In this document: positions 1-10,124 of the stretch, in pieces | How the letters are laid out: the number at the start of each line of letters is the position of its first letter | How positions within the stretch are numbered: position 1 is the stretch's first letter | From: JADFSZ01 sp022560555 [NCBI: PVC group bacterium] | Lineage (GTDB): Bacteria > GCA-001730085 > JADFSZ01 | Length of the DNA stretch: 11,114 bases | Direction of reading: 5' to 3' | NCBI GenBank assembly: GCA_022560555.1 | Contig: JADFSZ010000043.1 | Location: 1 to 11,114, forward strand | The notes under the pieces: model-generated | The model's input: only the letters and a program-made list of their open reading frames with translations | Told to the model about the DNA's origin: nothing | Databases searched by the model: none | Position numbers and translations under genes: made by a program

Positions 1-689
1 ACTTTATTTAAGATATCCTCGCTGATTTCGGGTGAATTATGAAAGAAAAGATTCCTGTTTACGCAAGCGACGCATGTGACGTAGTGCGAAACAACGCTCA
101 CATCATGACTCACGATAATGATCGTGATCCTTTGATTGAGCTTCTTTAAAAGTTCATAGAGGCGCGTTTGCCCTTCGGTATCAATGCTGGTCGTCGGTTC
201 ATCGAGAATAAGAATTCTGGGTTCTGTCGCGAGAGCACGGGCGATAAACACGCGCTGGCGTTGTCCCATAGATAAATTTCCCATACGCTTTTGCGCTAGA
301 TGCCGGACCTCCATCGCTTCGAGCGCTTTTTGGACGACCGTTTGATCTTTTTTGGATGAACGACCGAAAAACATTTTGTGCCCCAGGCGTCCCATTTTGA
401 CAACATCTTGGACAGAGATGGGAAAATCAAGATTGATATTCGGGTTTTGTCCGACATATCCGCACGAGCGTTTCGCTCGATTTGGCGCGGATCCAAAAAT
501 CCTAACGAGCCCCTGTGTGGGTGAAAGGAGGCCCAAAAGGATTTTAAGCAATGTAGTTTTTCCACCGCCGTTCGGTCCAATGATGGCTAAAAAATCTTTT
601 TCTCGAATCGAAAATGAAATATTCTCAAGGATCACGTTCGCGTCATAAGCAAACGAAAGATTTTTGACTTCTATCGCGCTATTCGGCAT
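1..689 (-). CDS. znuC: Zinc ABC transporter ATP-binding protein ZnuC (partial, runs off the left edge)
   Basis: This is the ATPase that powers high-affinity Zn(2+) (possibly Mn/Fe) import, acting on the cytoplasmic face of a ZnuB-type permease. About 229 residues are visible, and the 3' end lies outside the window. Landmarks in order are Walker A GPNGGGKTT at residues 38-46, the Q-loop Gln at 81, an ABC signature LSMGQ at 139-143 (Met in place of the usual first Gly), Walker B ILILDEP at 159-165 and the H-loop His in SHD at 194-196. The visible tail, with VACVNR followed by an EIS segment, resembles the ZnuC end rather than a generic ABC ATPase. The ATG was chosen because GGAGG lies six bases upstream of it. 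The gene overlaps the end of znuA by 11 bases, which suggests translational coupling. The metal is inferred from the neighbouring znuA and zur; a manganese or iron system cannot be excluded. Confidence 0.93.
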   Translation of the reverse strand, partial: MPNSAIEVKNLSFAYDANVILENISFSIREKDFLAIIGPNGGGKTTLLKILLGLLSPTQGLVRIFGSAPNRAKRSCGYVGQNPNINLDFPISVQDVVKMGRLGHKMFFGRSSKKDQTVVQKALEAMEVRHLAQKRMGNLSMGQRQRVFIARALATEPRILILDEPTTSIDTEGQTRLYELLKKLNQRITIIIVSHDVSVVSHYVTCVACVNRNLFFHNSPEISEDILNK

Positions 690-1569
690 CAGTTGCCTCC
701 ATAGCGGACAAAAGGATTTGGGCGGCAACTTCGCGGATATTTTCATACCAATCGACTGCGAGGGGATCGATCAAAACGACTTTCCCTCCAATGGATTTAG
801 CGATGATATCCGCCGATTTTGTGGAAACGTGCGGACTTGCGAAAACAGTTTTGATGCTATATTTTTTGGCGATTTTTATGAGCCCGGCAAGTTCTTGCGC
901 TTTGGGATTCTTTCCGTTTTTTTCTATCGAAAGCTGGATGAGGTTATAGCTATCCGCGAAATATCCCCATGAGGGGTGGTGAACAAGAAAAGTAAATGGT
1001 GTTTTGACAAACGCGTAGGATTTCCGGATTTCGATATCTAAATCGATAAGGTCATTTGATAATTTCCCAAAATTTTTTTTATAAATATTTTTATTTTCCG
1101 GATCGAATTTTATGAAAGCGTTCGCGATATTTTTTACTTGAATGAGAACACGGCCAGGATCGAGCCATATGTGCGGATCAAAATCTTGAGGATGTCTCTT
1201 TCGAGAACGGAGTATATGATGAAGGGGAATTTTGTCTACGTCTTCATCCGTATGGATGATTTTAAGATCCGGATTAAGATTTGCGAATCGCTCAAGCCAC
1301 ATGGCTTCGAAGGGGACTCCGATCGCAAAGTATAAATGAGCGCGAGAAACTTGAACCATTTGCTGCGGTGTGGGCTCATATGTTTCGGGTGATTTTCCGG
1401 GCCGGACGAGGGATTGAACGGTCCATGTGTCACCGGCAATTTTTTGAATAAAATATTCTTGAGGTGGGATGCTCGCAAGAACGGTCATATCCTCGCCTTC
1501 GCCGTGCGCACTAAAACAGGGGGTGAAGAGCGTGAGCCATAGGAAGATTCGTGTGAACAGGGTTTTCAT
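679..1569 (-). CDS. znuA: Periplasmic zinc-binding protein of the ABC transporter (ZnuA/TroA family)
   Basis: This is a 296-residue cluster A-I (TroA-like) metal-binding protein that captures zinc outside the membrane and delivers it to the ZnuBC transporter. Residues 1-21 look like a Sec signal peptide cleaved after FSA. No lipobox is visible. Three expected metal ligands are seen: His133 in DPHIWLDP, His198 in HHPSWGYFA and Asp268 in IDPL. The first ligand position, in SPETYEPTP, is Glu62 where most relatives have His. No long His-rich loop is present. The ATG at 1569 is preferred over an upstream in-frame TTG at 1680 because the signal peptide begins there, AAGG lies about seven bases upstream, and it forms an ATGA overlap with the zur reading frame that carries the conserved C-terminus. 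The gene sits between zur and znuC in one operon and is probably zinc-repressed. The family is certain; zinc over manganese is inferred from context. Confidence 0.92.
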   Translation of the reverse strand: MKTLFTRIFLWLTLFTPCFSAHGEGEDMTVLASIPPQEYFIQKIAGDTWTVQSLVRPGKSPETYEPTPQQMVQVSRAHLYFAIGVPFEAMWLERFANLNPDLKIIHTDEDVDKIPLHHILRSRKRHPQDFDPHIWLDPGRVLIQVKNIANAFIKFDPENKNIYKKNFGKLSNDLIDLDIEIRKSYAFVKTPFTFLVHHPSWGYFADSYNLIQLSIEKNGKNPKAQELAGLIKIAKKYSIKTVFASPHVSTKSADIIAKSIGGKVVLIDPLAVDWYENIREVAAQILLSAMEATDAE

Positions 1570-2005
1570 AAAGAGACCTTTGAATGTTTTTGGCATTGTT
1601 CGCAAATTCCCGAAAGACGGATGGAAATATCTCGAACAGAAAATTGGTTGCGACACGCATGATCTGAACGGATTCATCAAATCCGATATGATCTAAGCAA
1701 AAAATCTTTTGGCATTGATCGCACTTAAAATGCGGATGGACGGGTTTATGAACACAAGCGGCTTCGAAATGCTGGGTGCCGTTATGATCAAACACTTCTC
1801 GCAGGAGGCGGTTTTTTACCAGTGCGTGGCAGATACGATACACGGTGACCAGATCAAGGGGGATTTTTCTCTTAACCTTTGAATGTAAAGAATTTGCATT
1901 AACAGGTCTTGGATGCCTCAAAATTTCTTCAAGGACAGCCAGGCGTGTGGGTGTTATTTTCAGTTTTTTCGACTGAAGAAGGTGTTTTGCATTGCATTTG
2001 TCCAT
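1566..2005 (-). CDS. zur: Fur-family metalloregulator, probably Zur, with an apparent frameshift
   Basis: This is a Fur-superfamily repressor. Next to znuA and znuC it is most likely the zinc sensor Zur. Residues 1-121 read normally: an N-terminal winged helix with ITPTRLAVLEEI near 17-28, the recognition segment DLVTVYR at 51-57, a His-rich metal-site stretch (VHKPVHPHF, 85-93) and the first structural zinc pair CDQC at 95-98. At a run of four T (plus-strand AAAA at 1640-1643) the frame is lost. The original frame continues as an unrelated tail to 1511. In the -1 frame the expected Fur ending appears, with FSVRDISIRLSGICEQCQ and the second CxxC, and it stops at TGA 1568-1566, overlapping the znuA ATG as ATGA. 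One extra T would give a 146-residue protein, normal for the family. The cause may be a sequencing or assembly indel, a real mutation, or less likely slippage. The ATG at 2005 has no Shine-Dalgarno but gives the usual Fur N-terminus. Confidence 0.86.
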
Positions 2006-2013
2006 AGGGGGCC

Positions 2014-2041
2014 ATTATATGTAAACGCAAATGATTTGCAA
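2014..2041 (-). promoter_or_regulatory. Promoter of zur-znuA-znuC
   Basis: Read on the minus strand, the sequence has TTGCAA (2041-2036) as -35, a 16-base spacer and a perfect TATAAT (2019-2014) as -10. Transcription should start about 2006-2008, only a few bases before the zur ATG at 2005. The transcript would therefore be nearly leaderless, and no Shine-Dalgarno is present. The operator palindrome lies within the spacer and touches the -35 box. Confidence 0.72.
2027..2039. promoter_or_regulatory. Candidate Zur operator (6-1-6 palindrome)
   Basis: GCAAATGATTTGC is a perfect 6-1-6 inverted repeat with the AATnATT core common to Fur/Zur/PerR boxes. It overlaps the -35 box and spacer of the zur promoter, so metal-loaded Zur bound here would block RNA polymerase. 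The palindrome is seen directly; its use by this regulator is inferred from position and family knowledge. Confidence 0.62.
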
Positions 2042-5049: not shown

Positions 5050-6342
5050 ATGAGCGCACAAAATATGGTCATGGGAAAAACAATATCTAAAAAAACCATC
5101 GAGGACATTGATGTATCCGGAAAACGGGTGCTTATTCGTGTGGATTTCAATGTGCCTCAGGATGCCGATGGACGGATCACGGATGATCGCCGCATTAAGG
5201 GGGCGCTTCCGACGATTGAGTATCTTCTCTCAAAAAATTGCGCCGTAATTTTGATGAGTCATATGGGGCGTCCTAAGGGGCAGGTTCATGACAAGTACAG
5301 ACTTGATCAAGTCCGCGTACGTTTAAGTGAGTTGCTCGGACGGGATGTTTTTAAAACAGCTGATTGTATCGGGGACATTGTTTGGGAAAAGGCCAATGCG
5401 CTGCAATCCGGACAAATTCTCCTTTTAGAAAACTTACGTTTTCATTCTGAGGAAGAAGAGAATGATCCGGAGTTTGCGAAAAAATTGGCCGGACTTGCCG
5501 ATGTGTATGTGAATGACGCGTTTGGCACGGCACATCGCGCACATGCGTCCACGGAGGGGATCACGAAGTATCTACCGAGTGTGGCCGGTTTTTTGATGGA
5601 AAAAGAGATACAATTTTTGTCCGGAATTTTAGAAAACCCCGGTCGTCCCTTTGTAGCTATTATAGGGGGCGCAAAAGTATCGGACAAAATAAAAGTTATT
5701 GATAGTCTTTTGGATAAGGTGGATGTTCTGCTCATTGGCGGGGCTATGGCCTACACATTTTTAAAAGAGCAGGGTGTAGCTGTCGGAGCGTCTCTTGTCG
5801 AAGGTGTCATTGAAGACAAAAAAGGACAAAAGGTGGATTGTCCGGCTTTGGCCCGTCAGGCTATTGAGAAAGCCAAAACGAACAATAGTAGGCTTTTGCT
5901 TCCCGTTGACCATATTCAGGCAAAACCCGTAAAAGAGATGGATGCCGGCGGTCATGAAAAGCTAGTTTGGAAAGAAGCTTCTTTGAACGGGGTGAAGGAT
6001 ATCCAGGAAGGATTTGCCGGTGTGGATATAGGGCCTGAGACGTCCCGGATTTACGCCGAAGAAATTCAAAAAGCGAAAACAGTAATTTGGAACGGTCCGA
6101 TGGGTATTTTTGAAGAGAAACCATTTAGCAAGGGGACACTCGAAGTGGCCCGCGCGTGCGCGGCCACAAGCGAACAAGGAGGCATAACGGTGGTTGGCGG
6201 CGGGGATAGTGTGGCAGCCGTTGAATCCTTGGGTTACTCTCAAAAGATTACGCATATCTCTACGGGAGGAGGAGCCGCTCTGGAATTACTTGAAGGAAAA
6301 ACACTCCCCGGGTTGGCAGTATTAGAGGATAAAGATGCATAA
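5050..6342 (+). CDS. pgk: Phosphoglycerate kinase
   Basis: This enzyme transfers the acyl phosphate of 1,3-bisphosphoglycerate to ADP, giving ATP and 3-phosphoglycerate directly after the GAPDH step. The N-domain substrate-binding motifs are clear: RVDFNVP at residues 30-36 and SHMGRPKG at 70-77. The C-domain nucleotide-binding segments include IGGAKVSDKI, WNGPMGIFE and GGGDSVAAVESLG, ending with HISTGGGAALELLEG. At 430 residues it is slightly longer than the usual 390-415. Part of this is the N-terminal addition before KKTIEDIDV. The ATG at 5050 is favoured by GGAG eight bases upstream, although ATGs at 5065 or 5071 would give a more usual N-terminus. It lies 22 bases behind gap, and its stop codon is followed at once by the nonamer inverted repeat that separates it from tpiA. 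Confidence 0.97.
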   Translation: MSAQNMVMGKTISKKTIEDIDVSGKRVLIRVDFNVPQDADGRITDDRRIKGALPTIEYLLSKNCAVILMSHMGRPKGQVHDKYRLDQVRVRLSELLGRDVFKTADCIGDIVWEKANALQSGQILLLENLRFHSEEEENDPEFAKKLAGLADVYVNDAFGTAHRAHASTEGITKYLPSVAGFLMEKEIQFLSGILENPGRPFVAIIGGAKVSDKIKVIDSLLDKVDVLLIGGAMAYTFLKEQGVAVGASLVEGVIEDKKGQKVDCPALARQAIEKAKTNNSRLLLPVDHIQAKPVKEMDAGGHEKLVWKEASLNGVKDIQEGFAGVDIGPETSRIYAEEIQKAKTVIWNGPMGIFEEKPFSKGTLEVARACAATSEQGGITVVGGGDSVAAVESLGYSQKITHISTGGGAALELLEGKTLPGLAVLEDKDA

Positions 6343-6438
6343 ACCACAAAGGACACAAAGATCACAGAGAAAACATTTTTATATTTAAGAACTGAGATTA
6401 AAATCTTTTATCTCTGAGCCCTCTGTGAACTCTGTGGT
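6343..6438. repeat. Inverted repeat of CACAGAG-type nonamers filling the pgk-tpiA gap
   Basis: The left arm is three tandem nonamers: ACCACAAAG (6343-6351), GACACAAAG (6352-6360) and ATCACAGAG (6361-6369). The right arm is their imperfect reverse complement: CTCTGAGCC (6412-6420), CTCTGTGAA (6421-6429) and CTCTGTGGT (6430-6438). About 20 of 27 positions pair exactly, and several mismatches become G-U pairs in RNA, giving a long hairpin around an AT-rich loop of 42 bases. It begins immediately after the pgk stop and ends 23 bases before tpiA. From memory it resembles CACAGAG-rich intergenic repeats that are common in metagenomic bacterial genomes. Whether it is mobile, or affects mRNA stability or tpiA expression, is unknown. 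Confidence 0.8.
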
Positions 6439-6461
6439 GAAAGAAAGATGGAGAACCATTA

Positions 6462-7217
6462 ATGCGAACACCCGTTATAGCCGGCAACTGGAAGATGTAT
6501 AAAAATATCGACGAAGCCAAGTCGCTTGCAATCGAGCTGAAGAATCTTGTTTCAGAGGTGAGGGATCGTCAAGTATTTATCTGTCCGAGTTTTGTGTGTC
6601 TGGCAGCCGTCAGGGATATTGTGAAAGACACCCGTATCGCTCTTGGAGCGCAAAACGTGAATTATGAAGAAGAAGGCGCTTACACGGGAGAAGTATCTGC
6701 CGATATGCTCAAAAGTATCGGTGTGTCTTTTGTGATACTCGGACATTCTGAGAGACGGGCTTACTTTCATGAAACTGACGAGTCTATTAATAAAAAACTT
6801 AAAAAAGTTTTATCAAAATCGATGACACCCATCGTTTGTGTCGGGGAGCTTTTAGAAGATCGGGAACGAGGGAGTACGGCGGATGTAATCAAAAAGCAGA
6901 TCCATGGATGCTTAGAAAATATATCACCTGAGGATTTGATCAAAATTGTGATTGCGTATGAGCCCGTGTGGGCCATTGGGACGGGCAAGACTGCCAGCCC
7001 GGAACAGGCCGAAGAGGTCCACGCTCTCATCAGAGGCGAATTAAAAAGTAAATATAATAATTCGGTTTCCGAACAAGTTCGTATACAATACGGAGGGTCA
7101 GTTAAACCGGGCAATATTGATGAATTGATGAAGAAACCCAATATTGATGGTGCCCTTGTCGGAGGAGCGAGTTTGAAGGCCGAAGATTTCGCGCGTATTG
7201 TTAAATTTGAAGGATAG
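6462..7217 (+). CDS. tpiA: Triosephosphate isomerase
   Basis: This enzyme interconverts dihydroxyacetone phosphate and glyceraldehyde 3-phosphate, feeding the GAPDH step encoded upstream. The 251-residue length is normal for the (beta/alpha)8 enzyme. Catalytic residues are all visible: Lys11 in AGNWKMYK, His95 in VILGHSERR and Glu167 in AYEPVWAIGTGKTA, which also contains the mobile loop 6. YGGSVKPGNI and DGALVGGASL are the phosphate-binding strands near the C-terminus. The ATG at 6462 has GGAG nine bases upstream and gives the standard N-terminus. secG follows after eight bases, so the two are co-transcribed. The repeat in front of it may separate its expression level from pgk. Confidence 0.97.
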   Translation: MRTPVIAGNWKMYKNIDEAKSLAIELKNLVSEVRDRQVFICPSFVCLAAVRDIVKDTRIALGAQNVNYEEEGAYTGEVSADMLKSIGVSFVILGHSERRAYFHETDESINKKLKKVLSKSMTPIVCVGELLEDRERGSTADVIKKQIHGCLENISPEDLIKIVIAYEPVWAIGTGKTASPEQAEEVHALIRGELKSKYNNSVSEQVRIQYGGSVKPGNIDELMKKPNIDGALVGGASLKAEDFARIVKFEG

Positions 7218-7225
7218 GTGAAAAA

Positions 7226-7681
7226 ATGTATTTTGCTCTCATTGTTTTACATGTGACCGTGTGTATTCTGTTGATTGTCATCGTTTTGCTTCAAGCCGGA
7301 CGCGGGGGTGGTCTGTCCGGGGCTTTTGGTGTTGGTGATGGACAGAATGTGTTCGGAACACAAGCCACAACTTTTCTTTCAAAGGCCACTACGGCTTTTG
7401 CCGTTATTTTTATGGTTGGATCCCTGCTTTTGACGATCTCTTCAGGCCGCCGTTCGGAATCGGTGATGGAGAATGCGGAATTACCGAGTGTGACACAAGC
7501 TATTCCTCAAGAAAGTTTTGACGATGATCTGAGCAGGATCAAGGTCCCGCTTGGGGGAATCGATTCATCCGGGGATATCTTGGAAGATAATCGCTCCAGC
7601 GATATGTCGATGGATACGATAAGCTCCGAAGAGATAAACGAGGAGAGTGTTCCTGAACTTGACCAGGATGAAGATTTATAG
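7226..7681 (+). CDS. secG: Protein translocase subunit SecG with a long acidic C-terminal tail
   Basis: SecG is the small accessory subunit of the SecYEG channel in the inner membrane. The first 75 or so residues are typical: a transmembrane helix at about 3-23, the conserved QAGRGGGLSGAFG loop, NVFGTQATTFLSKAT, and a second helix at about 55-72. The tpiA-secG adjacency is common in bacteria and supports the call. Unusually, another 75 residues follow, rich in Asp, Glu and Ser and without hydrophobic segments, so the protein reaches 151 residues where many SecG are 75-110. By the known topology this tail would lie outside the cytoplasm. AGG-containing sequence before the ATG serves as ribosome binding site. 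The next gene probably starts within the last 14 bases of this one. Confidence 0.93.
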   Translation: MYFALIVLHVTVCILLIVIVLLQAGRGGGLSGAFGVGDGQNVFGTQATTFLSKATTAFAVIFMVGSLLLTISSGRRSESVMENAELPSVTQAIPQESFDDDLSRIKVPLGGIDSSGDILEDNRSSDMSMDTISSEEINEESVPELDQDEDL

Positions 7682-8315
7682 AAAAAATATTAAGTTGTGG
7701 TTGTTGCCACCGATGTATCCATCACAAGGGATTAAATGCGGTGGTTTTTTTATGTTGGTTTTAGTGTTCATGCTATTCTCCGGGGCCGCCGTTTTTGCGG
7801 ATGTGATCACCACAATCGATGGGAACCAAATACACGGCAAGGTTCTAGAAGAGCATGAGAAAGAGTATCTTATTCAGGTAGATTCGGGACGGATTACGAT
7901 CTCAAAAAACCAGATAGCCTCGATTGATAATGCTCCTTGGTCTCCTGCCTCAAACGTGCAAGCCCCTGAGGCTATAAAAACAGCCCGAGGACCTTCCCTC
8001 AAAGAAAAAATCATTATTGATGTATTGTTTTGGTTTTTAGGCTTTTTCCTATATGCCGCTCTTGTGTATCTCGTGTTTCGTATTGTAGACATCCAAAAAA
8101 AGATTTTTACGGCGCTGATATTTTCTCTAACTTCACTAATGTTTTTTTATGTCTCATCTTTTTTTGTTTTTTCCCAAATCTATTTTTCGTTTGCGAATAT
8201 TATGCTCATATACTTTTTTTATGACTTTGGGCCTGTTCGTTCGTTTTTATTCGGAATTTTTTTTACATGGGTTATCATGGTCTCATCTGTTATCTTTTTT
8301 ACGATACGATTGTAG
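7668..8315 (+). CDS. Uncharacterised membrane protein with a signal peptide and a small beta domain
   Basis: I do not recognise a named family for the whole protein. From the chosen start it has 215 residues. A basic N-terminal stretch is followed by a hydrophobic segment (about 28-44) ending in VFA, which looks like a Sec signal peptide. Residues 45-87 (DVITTIDGNQIHGKVLEEH onward) resemble small SH3/Sm-like beta domains of the type that begins with a short strand, a DG turn and a GxV strand. After a proline-rich linker come four Phe-rich transmembrane helices, near 115-138, 146-168, 170-186 and 191-213. The start is uncertain: ATG 7668 overlaps secG and supplies positive charges, while ATG 7752 has a GGTGG eight bases upstream and gives a shorter signal. 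It lies between secG and a substrate-binding lipoprotein, with a nine-base gap to the latter. A role in the cell envelope is only a guess. Confidence 0.8.
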   Translation: MKIYRKNIKLWLLPPMYPSQGIKCGGFFMLVLVFMLFSGAAVFADVITTIDGNQIHGKVLEEHEKEYLIQVDSGRITISKNQIASIDNAPWSPASNVQAPEAIKTARGPSLKEKIIIDVLFWFLGFFLYAALVYLVFRIVDIQKKIFTALIFSLTSLMFFYVSSFFVFSQIYFSFANIMLIYFFYDFGPVRSFLFGIFFTWVIMVSSVIFFTIRL

Positions 8316-8324
8316 GATTTTCAT

Positions 8325-10124
8325 ATGACAGAATTTGCCTTTGGCTCAAAAATGAGAAAATGGATCTTTTTTTTGTTTGTCCTTATCGTTTGCTCTGGAT
8401 GCGCCAAAAAAACTATAACAGAGGAGAAAAGGGTTCGTCCAAGTTCGAAACATGGCGGAATAGTTGTTTTTTCCACAAGCTCCGATCCAAGATCTTTTAA
8501 CGCGATCGTCTCCAATGAAAGCTCAACAAGCGAAGCCATCTCATATATCTTTGATGGAATGACGAGAACCAACGGGGTTACCGGGGATGTCGAGCCTTCT
8601 TTGGCCGAACGTTGGGAGTATTCCGAGGACGGGCTCGTGTGGACGTTTTATTTAAGAAACGATGTGGTCTGGTTTGACGGTGTCCCCTTTACGGCAGATG
8701 ATGTTGTGTTCACGTTCAATGACCTCATATATAACCCATCCATTCCGTCTAGCATGCGGGATCTTTTAACGATTGACGGACAAAAGTTCGAGATTCGAAA
8801 AATGGATATGTACACGGTTGAAGTCCGCACTCCCGTTCCCTACGCTCCCTTGTTGAGACATATTGGGGTAGGGATCTTGCCCCGACACCGGCTGATCGAA
8901 AGTGTGGAAGGCGGAACATTTCCCGTCACATGGGGTGTTGACACGCCCCCGGAAGAGATTATCGGCACGGGTCCCTATCGTTTGGCGGAGTATGTTCCGG
9001 CCCAAAAATTGGTTTACAAGAGAAACGAGAATTATTGGAGAAAAGATAGAGACGGATTTCGCCTTCCGTATATCGACCAAATTGTCACGATTATCGTTCC
9101 GGATGACAATGTGCAGATCGCAAAGTTTCAGGCGCGAGAAGTGGATTCTTTACGTGTTCGCCCCAAGGACTACGCGTATGTTAAATCAATCCAACAGAAG
9201 GGTAATTTTACCATTTATGATCTTGGCCCGGCTTTTGGATCCACGTTTATTATGTTTAATCAGGATCAAACCGTCATTGATCCTGTGATGCTTGCATGGT
9301 TTCGCGATAGAAATTTTCGGAAAGCCGTCGCCTACGCAATTGATAGAGAAACGATTATTAATAATGTGTATTCTGGATTGGGTGTGGCTCAGGTTTCTCC
9401 CGTCAGCAAAGCAGATCCGATTTTTCATAATGCCGATGTTCGATCATACGCATATGATCCCGAAAAGGCGAAGAACCTATTGAAAGAAAGCGGATATGTG
9501 GATTCGAATCAGGACGGTTTTTTGGAAAAACCCGAGGGACATCCCGTTAAATTTATGCTCATTACAAATTCGAATAATAGTGAACGGAAGGATATGGCTC
9601 TTATCGTAACGGAAAATTTGAGAGCGATAGGGATGGATGTGACCTATCGCACGTTGGACTTTAATAATCTTGTTCAAAAACTCGATGGAACCGGAGAATG
9701 GGAATCCATGATTTTGGGTTTGGGTGGGGGGAATCTTGAACCCCATGGAGGGAAAAACGTGTGGGATCCGTCGGGACGCCTTCACATGTGGAATCGTAAA
9801 CTGAGCAAGGATCAATATTCAAAAAAGGAACGAGAACAATCGTATGACGCGTATGTCCAATCATGGGAAGATCATTTGCCGGATTGGGAATGGCGTATTT
9901 TAGAGCTATTTAATCAAGGTGTCCAGGAACTGGTCGAAGAAAAGAGAAAAGTTTATTATTACGAATGGCAGGACATTGTAGCCGAAGAACTTCCTCTCAT
10001 CTATCTTGTAACTCCAAAAAACTATATGGCGGTCCGGAATAAATTCATTGGCTTAAAACCTTCAAGTTTCGCGGGAGTTTTTCATAACTTTGACGAGCTT
10101 TATCTCAAAGACGAGTATCGCTGA
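8325..10124 (+). CDS. Oligopeptide-type ABC transporter substrate-binding lipoprotein (SBP_bac_5 family)
   Basis: This 599-residue extracytoplasmic solute-binding protein is of the OppA/DppA class, which binds peptides or, in some members, nickel or sugars. A lipoprotein signal peptide (WIFFLFVLIVCSGC) places the lipidated Cys at 26. The -3 position is Cys rather than Leu, a slightly unusual lipobox. The family core is clear: DPRSFNAI near 54, PSLAERWEYSEDGLVWTFYL at 91-110, DGVPFTADDVVFTF at 118-131, GTGPYRL, and FRKAVAYAIDRETIINNVY. DSNQDGFLE at 393-401 looks like a calcium-loop motif, as found in many relatives. ATG 8325 is chosen because AGGA lies eight bases upstream; ATG 8352 would also keep the signal. 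No permease or ATPase genes are adjacent, so it is an orphan here and its ligand cannot be assigned. Confidence 0.93.
   Translation: MTEFAFGSKMRKWIFFLFVLIVCSGCAKKTITEEKRVRPSSKHGGIVVFSTSSDPRSFNAIVSNESSTSEAISYIFDGMTRTNGVTGDVEPSLAERWEYSEDGLVWTFYLRNDVVWFDGVPFTADDVVFTFNDLIYNPSIPSSMRDLLTIDGQKFEIRKMDMYTVEVRTPVPYAPLLRHIGVGILPRHRLIESVEGGTFPVTWGVDTPPEEIIGTGPYRLAEYVPAQKLVYKRNENYWRKDRDGFRLPYIDQIVTIIVPDDNVQIAKFQAREVDSLRVRPKDYAYVKSIQQKGNFTIYDLGPAFGSTFIMFNQDQTVIDPVMLAWFRDRNFRKAVAYAIDRETIINNVYSGLGVAQVSPVSKADPIFHNADVRSYAYDPEKAKNLLKESGYVDSNQDGFLEKPEGHPVKFMLITNSNNSERKDMALIVTENLRAIGMDVTYRTLDFNNLVQKLDGTGEWESMILGLGGGNLEPHGGKNVWDPSGRLHMWNRKLSKDQYSKKEREQSYDAYVQSWEDHLPDWEWRILELFNQGVQELVEEKRKVYYYEWQDIVAEELPLIYLVTPKNYMAVRNKFIGLKPSSFAGVFHNFDELYLKDEYR

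What the first reader, a model, noticed from the sequence alone, without database searches (positions are those of the whole stretch)
1566..1650. zur is frameshifted at a four-T run; the real C-terminus is in another frame
The first 121 residues are a normal Fur-family protein. The annotated frame then runs into a 43-residue tail unlike Fur that overlaps znuA by 59 bases. In the -1 frame from the T4 run at 1640-1643 the canonical ending appears, with ISIRLSGICEQCQ and the second structural CxxC, and it stops in an ATGA overlap with znuA. One missing T explains everything. Either the assembly has a homopolymer error, or the strain has a broken zinc regulator, or the ribosome slips at U-UUU.
Basis: partly seen in the sequence, partly recalled or inferred. 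Interest (0 to 1): 0.6.

Follow-up and report, generated by a model that had tools for sequence, protein, structure and literature searches.

The report
Zinc-regulator gene with one-base frame break
The gene for a probable zinc-sensing repressor in a bacterial genome assembly loses its reading frame near the end; other genes of the same assembly are broken in the same way, so a sequence error or a one-base mutation is the likely and ordinary cause.

Summary
The zur-like ORF (2005-1511, minus) is a normal Fur-family protein for about 120 residues, then runs into 43 unrelated residues overlapping znuA by 59 bases. The lost ending, with the second CxxC, lies in the -1 frame and stops in an ATGA overlap with znuA. 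Ten of ten distinct relatives carry that ending in one frame. Adding the -1 tail raises the profile score from 147.0 to 176.5 bits; 0 of 2000 shuffles and 0 of 6869 genomic peptides reach it. The break lies at about 1637-1652; the T4 run is inside but not singled out. Programmed slippage is unlikely. The break is not alone: in sampled contigs of the same assembly mutS (the only copy found) is split once and a BaxI-like gene twice, at or near short homopolymers. So I favour indel errors in the sequence. A real mutation, perhaps in a mutS-deficient mutator, is the main rival. Raw reads would decide; none were at hand. By-product: an intact, conserved operator (TTGCAAATCATTTGC) in front of zur, with a predicted leaderless transcript.

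The parts
1646..2005 (-). zur-like gene, intact N-terminal part (120 residues: DNA-binding domain, first CxxC CDQC)
   Evidence: PF01475 43.7 bits, cut-off 23.1; 41-47% identity to four relatives
1637..1652 (-). stretch in which the reading frame changes by -1 (holds TTTT at 1640-1643)
   Evidence: profile scan of change positions, 175.3-177.1 bits here; only run of 3 or more
1566..1640 (-). displaced C-terminal coding stretch in the -1 frame, with second CxxC (CEQC) and TGA stop at 1568-1566
1511..1642 (-). 43-residue tail read in the zur frame with its stop; no relative found
679..1569 (-). znuA-like gene (metal ABC transporter binding protein), intact, start overlaps the -1-frame stop as ATGA
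   Evidence: PF01297 203.3 bits; open to its stop
3..689 (-). znuC-like ATPase gene, cut by the contig end
   Evidence: PF00005 111.7 bits; open
2027..2041 (-). probable Zur operator TTGCAAATCATTTGC overlapping the -35 hexamer
   Evidence: conserved in front of relatives' zur; only exact match to the longer pattern in the genome
2014..2041 (-). sigma-70-like promoter TTGCAA-16-TATAAT, 8 bases before the zur start
   Evidence: the scan finds 1, shuffles 1.7 on average, so the match alone is not significant

Best explanation
The sequence of this contig carries a one-base indel (net -1 frame) in zur at about 1637-1652, and most likely the living gene does not: it is an indel error of the reads or the consensus at a short homopolymer, one of several in this assembly. 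The real gene would then be an ordinary Fur-family repressor of about 146 residues, with two CxxC pairs, coupled by an ATGA overlap to znuA and repressing its own zur-znu operon through the TTGCAAATCATTTGC box. Shown: the frame change, the homology of both halves, the further broken genes, the conserved box. Inferred: that the cause is technical, and that the metal is zinc.
For: Both halves are well conserved and nothing else in the gene is damaged: no stop on either side of the change, promoter, operator and znuA overlap intact. 10 of 10 distinct relatives are in one frame. Other genes of the assembly are frame-broken too: mutS split inside MutS domain II (profile 1-49 in one frame, 40-132 in another) and a BaxI_1 gene in three pieces (profile 3-91, 90-146, 143-232) on contig C1, the BaxI breaks next to a T7 and a G7 run. 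That makes 4 breaks in 3 genes seen in 174,524 bases (window included). The frame-transition survey PMC3711429 (passages) expects homology-validated single cases to be sequencing errors rather than genuine indels.
Against: No reads or coverage could be seen and the sequencing method is unknown. A four-T run is short for a homopolymer error. Three of the four breaks are on one contig. In 8 flagged sites or pairs elsewhere where both neighbours match a Pfam family, the families differ or the pair is a known gene pair, so the assembly is not broken everywhere. A broken mutS could be real and would itself produce such indels.
Confidence: 0.62

Rival explanations
1. The indel is real and recent: this strain makes a Zur that lacks the second structural CxxC and ends in a 43-residue foreign tail, so it should dimerise poorly and leave zinc uptake derepressed. 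If the mutS break is real too, the strain is a mismatch-repair-deficient mutator and short-run indels are its footprint.
For: Only one Fur-family match was found in this genome and only one MutS domain III match, the broken mutS; the MutL C-terminal-type match lies on the same contig and is open. The breaks sit at or near short homopolymers. For S. coelicolor Zur, changes in the four-Cys site cost dimerisation (PMC8000910, passages).
Against: The -1 tail shows no decay at all, so the event would have to be very recent. Errors explain the same set of breaks without a special strain. Genome completeness is 91.5%, so a second fur or mutS may be missing.
Confidence: 0.3
2. Programmed or tolerated -1 ribosomal slippage at U_UUU gives some full-length Zur.
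For: AAU_UUU contains the U_UUU tetramer, one of the six most shift-prone in E. coli when a strong pseudoknot is added; a hairpin can form 1-2 bases downstream.
Against: 10 of 10 relatives need no shift. No X_XXZ_ZZN heptamer: CAAUUUU. The hairpin is not better than shuffles (z -0.71, 0.26, -1.29). Without a stimulator tetramers give 0.147% against 0.112% background (PMC4066793, passages), too little to supply a repressor. Zero-frame product lacks a needed domain.
Confidence: 0.03
3. The 164-residue ORF is the true, functional protein with a new C-terminus.
For: The ORF is open to 1513 and some Fur-family proteins lack the second CxxC (for example L079, which has none).
Against: The tail finds nothing in relatives (best E 0.13) and adds 1.6 bits to the profile score; the conserved ending is present in full in the other frame.
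Confidence: 0.03

Closest known systems
zur-znuA-znuC loci of Deferribacterales Deferri_01 (L068/L077) and of held genome G145 (L070)
   Same: Fur-family gene 42-46% identical in the N part, same ending GICxQC-like, znuA start overlapping the zur end, same operator
   Different: Their zur is in one frame; their ZnuA have a His-rich stretch in L068, which the window's ZnuA lacks
PerR of Bacillus subtilis, PDB 2fe3 (closest solved chain to the relative L070)
   Same: Fold and two CxxC pairs by sequence alignment
   Different: 45.5 bits only; different context and sensing
Desulfovibrio Zur boxes ATGCAACnnnGTTGCAT (PMC545781, passages)
   Same: Palindrome with TGCAA half-sites by a znu operon
   Different: Spacing and centre differ from TTGCAAATCATTTGC

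Membership tests
Fur family (PF01475) | profile match above the curated cut-off | tested here: met
   43.7 bits, cut-off 23.1, profile 2-94 of 121
Fur family with structural Cys4 site | two CxxC pairs in one protein | tested here: not met
   first pair in the zur frame, second only in the -1 frame; 10 of 10 relatives have both in one frame
Zur (zinc uptake regulator) | NCBIfam Zur model above cut-off | tested here: not met
   NF008646 17.1 bits, cut-off 167; no NCBIfam model passes; the intact relative L070 also fails with 26.6, so the model is too narrow here
Zur (zinc uptake regulator) | gene next to a znuABC-like transporter with a shared operator | tested here: met
   znuA-like and ATPase genes follow; operator conserved
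Zur (zinc uptake regulator) | zinc-dependent repression | not testable with these tools
   needs protein work
programmed -1 frameshift gene | slippery heptamer plus stimulator | tested here: not met
   CAAUUUU is no heptamer; folding not better than shuffles
programmed -1 frameshift gene | frame change conserved among relatives | tested here: not met
   0 of 10
frame-broken gene (error or pseudogene) | both halves homologous to one protein in consecutive order | tested here: met

The most novel reading that the evidence does not exclude
The indels are real: a member of a little-sampled phylum has lost its only mutS, has become a mutator, and zur and a BaxI-like gene show its short-run indels, so the assembly has caught a regulator being lost within a mutator lineage.
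Probability: 0.1. Interest if true: 0.4.

Novelty: new member of a known kind. Interest (0 to 1): 0.2.

Why it matters
Little by itself: a frame-broken gene in a fragmented assembly. It warns that gene calls of this genome need checking (zur, mutS, a BaxI-like gene) before anyone reads biology into their loss. The useful by-product is a conserved operator with fixed spacing, which makes the zur regulon of several little-studied phyla testable.

Tried and rejected
That was wrong. A strict scan gave 0 direct frame changes; a looser one gave 64 changes, 9 not ordinary, finding 74 of 150 planted one-base losses. I had let two of the nine pass on layout. On recheck they are mutS and a BaxI_1 gene, and a further BaxI break had been classed as ordinary. 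Of the nine: 2 are breaks, 5 separate different families (L080 704, L083, L093, L094; L090), L099 follows a complete tRNA synthetase with no match on the other side, L091 499 has no match on either side and stays open. Twenty more open stretches, part of 62 neighbouring pairs, showed no family split between neighbours; 6 of 20 had no match. L098 10447-10725 matches only the first part of LemA and stays open. The scan does not flag zur itself, whose tail is too short. Control: the same scan on 175,711 bases of G001 gave 3 not ordinary of 27 changes, not followed up.

Codon usage: one search was trained on one gene out of frame and is discarded; one search gives no signal over the tail. One search carried two swapped tail labels; replace it. 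Zur scans: the single-protein scan of genome contigs found nothing; L077 was dropped as the same contig as L068, L079 as a distant Fur without CxxC. Other copies of the junction: 0 exact matches in viral contigs, not informative. Literature: zur with frameshift (listing, 12 papers hold all terms) showed no title on a frameshift within zur; TTGCAAAT with zur (listing of 10 of 98) showed no title on this operator; neither proves absence. One search (listing) gave one paper on long-read assembly.

Full report
The observation. The window is a whole contig (G000:C216, 11,114 bases) of a 1.66-Mb assembly in 222 contigs, 91.5% complete, from a phylum of which only two genomes are held. On the minus strand the ORF 2005-1511 has 164 codons. 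Its first 120 or so match the Fur family. It then runs on for 43 residues over the start of znuA.

The lost ending. Among 386 genomes searched with the N part, 20 had a match at E 1e-8 or better, the own genome among them; the four best others share 41-47% identity. In all four the protein ends, in a single frame, with a stretch like the window's -1 frame, for example GFDVQEISVTLSGICKQCNRREP in L070, and znuA follows with an overlapping start. A scan of genome contigs added six more distinct relatives from records titled Spirochaetes, Synergistota, Deferribacteraceae, Syntrophus, Synergistales and Deltaproteobacteria. All ten distinct relatives have both CxxC pairs in one frame. A znuA-like protein overlaps or directly follows in seven of the ten by eye (L068, L069, L070, L071, L074, L072, L078); L073, L075 and L076 were not settled.

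Is it chance? A profile of the ten relatives gives 147.0 bits to the N part, 148.6 with the zur-frame tail and 176.5 with the -1 tail. None of 2000 shuffled tails (best 157.7) and none of 6869 peptides from six frames of sampled contigs (best 157.2) comes near. The zur-frame tail has no relative in 1909 open stretches (best E 0.13); the -1 tail finds L070 at 3.8e-05.

Where is the break? Moving the change of frame codon by codon gives a plateau of 175.3-177.1 bits for a change at 1652-1637. The T4 run 1640-1643 is the only run of three or more there, so it is the likeliest place, but homology alone cannot choose within the plateau.

Slippage. The site reads ACC AAU UUU CUG: a U_UUU tetramer without a heptamer. 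Folding of three stretches gives z-scores of -0.71, 0.26 and -1.29. In E. coli such tetramers without a stimulator average 0.147% against 0.112% without a motif; with the IS3 pseudoknot six tetramers, U_UUU among them, reach 0.26-5.6% (PMC4066793, passages). No relative needs a shift. I consider programmed slippage very unlikely.

Error or mutation. I sampled 20 further contigs; 18 could be read, 163,410 bases, with the window 174,524. A frame-change scan and Pfam checks show two more broken genes, both on contig C1: mutS, split within MutS domain II, and a BaxI_1 gene in three pieces. The BaxI breaks lie by a T7 and a G7 run; the mutS break lies in 6594-6624 by the profile overlap, a stretch with runs of three and four. 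The broken mutS is the only MutS domain III match found in the genome. The scan found about half of planted losses (74 of 150), so 4 breaks in 174,524 bases is a lower bound. This pattern fits indel errors of the sequence. It also fits a strain that has lost mismatch repair; I give errors about two to one over real mutation. My earlier view that the zur break stands alone was wrong and is withdrawn.

If the break is real. The product would lack the second CxxC. For S. coelicolor Zur, changes in that four-Cys site alter the structure and cost dimerisation (PMC8000910, passages), so zinc uptake would be expected to be derepressed. That is inference. Only one Fur-family match was found in this genome.

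The regulatory region. The palindrome TTGCAAATCATTTGC lies at 2041-2027. TTGCAA occurs 28-30 bases before the zur start in the window and in 8 of 10 relatives (L068, L069, L070, L071, L073, L074, L076, L078; not L072 and L075); TTGCAAATNATTTGC is exact in four of the ten and one base off in L071. The longer pattern has one exact match in the genome; its 40 three-mismatch matches are near the reversed-pattern control (41 in all against 28). With a start codon at fixed distance it occurs in 3 of 192 genomes: the window, G145 zur, and one place not examined. In most of these loci the -10 hexamer ends 5-8 bases before the start codon, so the transcript should be leaderless. Whether the regulator senses zinc is inferred from znuA and from relatives; no NCBIfam model passes its cut-off, also not for an intact relative.

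Verdict. The finding is ordinary: a frame-broken zur, probably a sequence error, possibly a real recent mutation, hardly a programmed shift.

Noticed in passing
window 2014-2041 (-), and upstream of zur in L068-L071, L073, L074, L076, L078: Conserved palindrome TTGCAAATCATTTGC overlapping the -35 hexamer at fixed distance from the zur start; a candidate Zur box shared across several phyla.
   Followed up: partly
window 2005-2019 (-): The -10 hexamer TATAAT ends 8 bases before the zur ATG, and 5-8 bases in most relatives with the box: predicted leaderless zur-znu mRNA.
   Followed up: partly
L080 (G000:C1) 6106-8759: mutS is split into two frames at about 6594-6624; it is the only MutS domain III match in the genome, and a mutL-like gene follows.
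   Followed up: partly
L080 4258-5004: A BaxI_1 gene lies in three frames, with breaks near a T7 run (4555) and a G7 run (4719).
   Followed up: yes
window 679-1569 (-): The window's ZnuA-like protein lacks the His-rich stretch seen in the ZnuA of L068 and L069.
   Followed up: no
L098 10260-10725 (-): A 93-codon stretch matches only the first part of LemA and is followed by an overlapping open stretch without a match; possibly another frame break.
   Followed up: no
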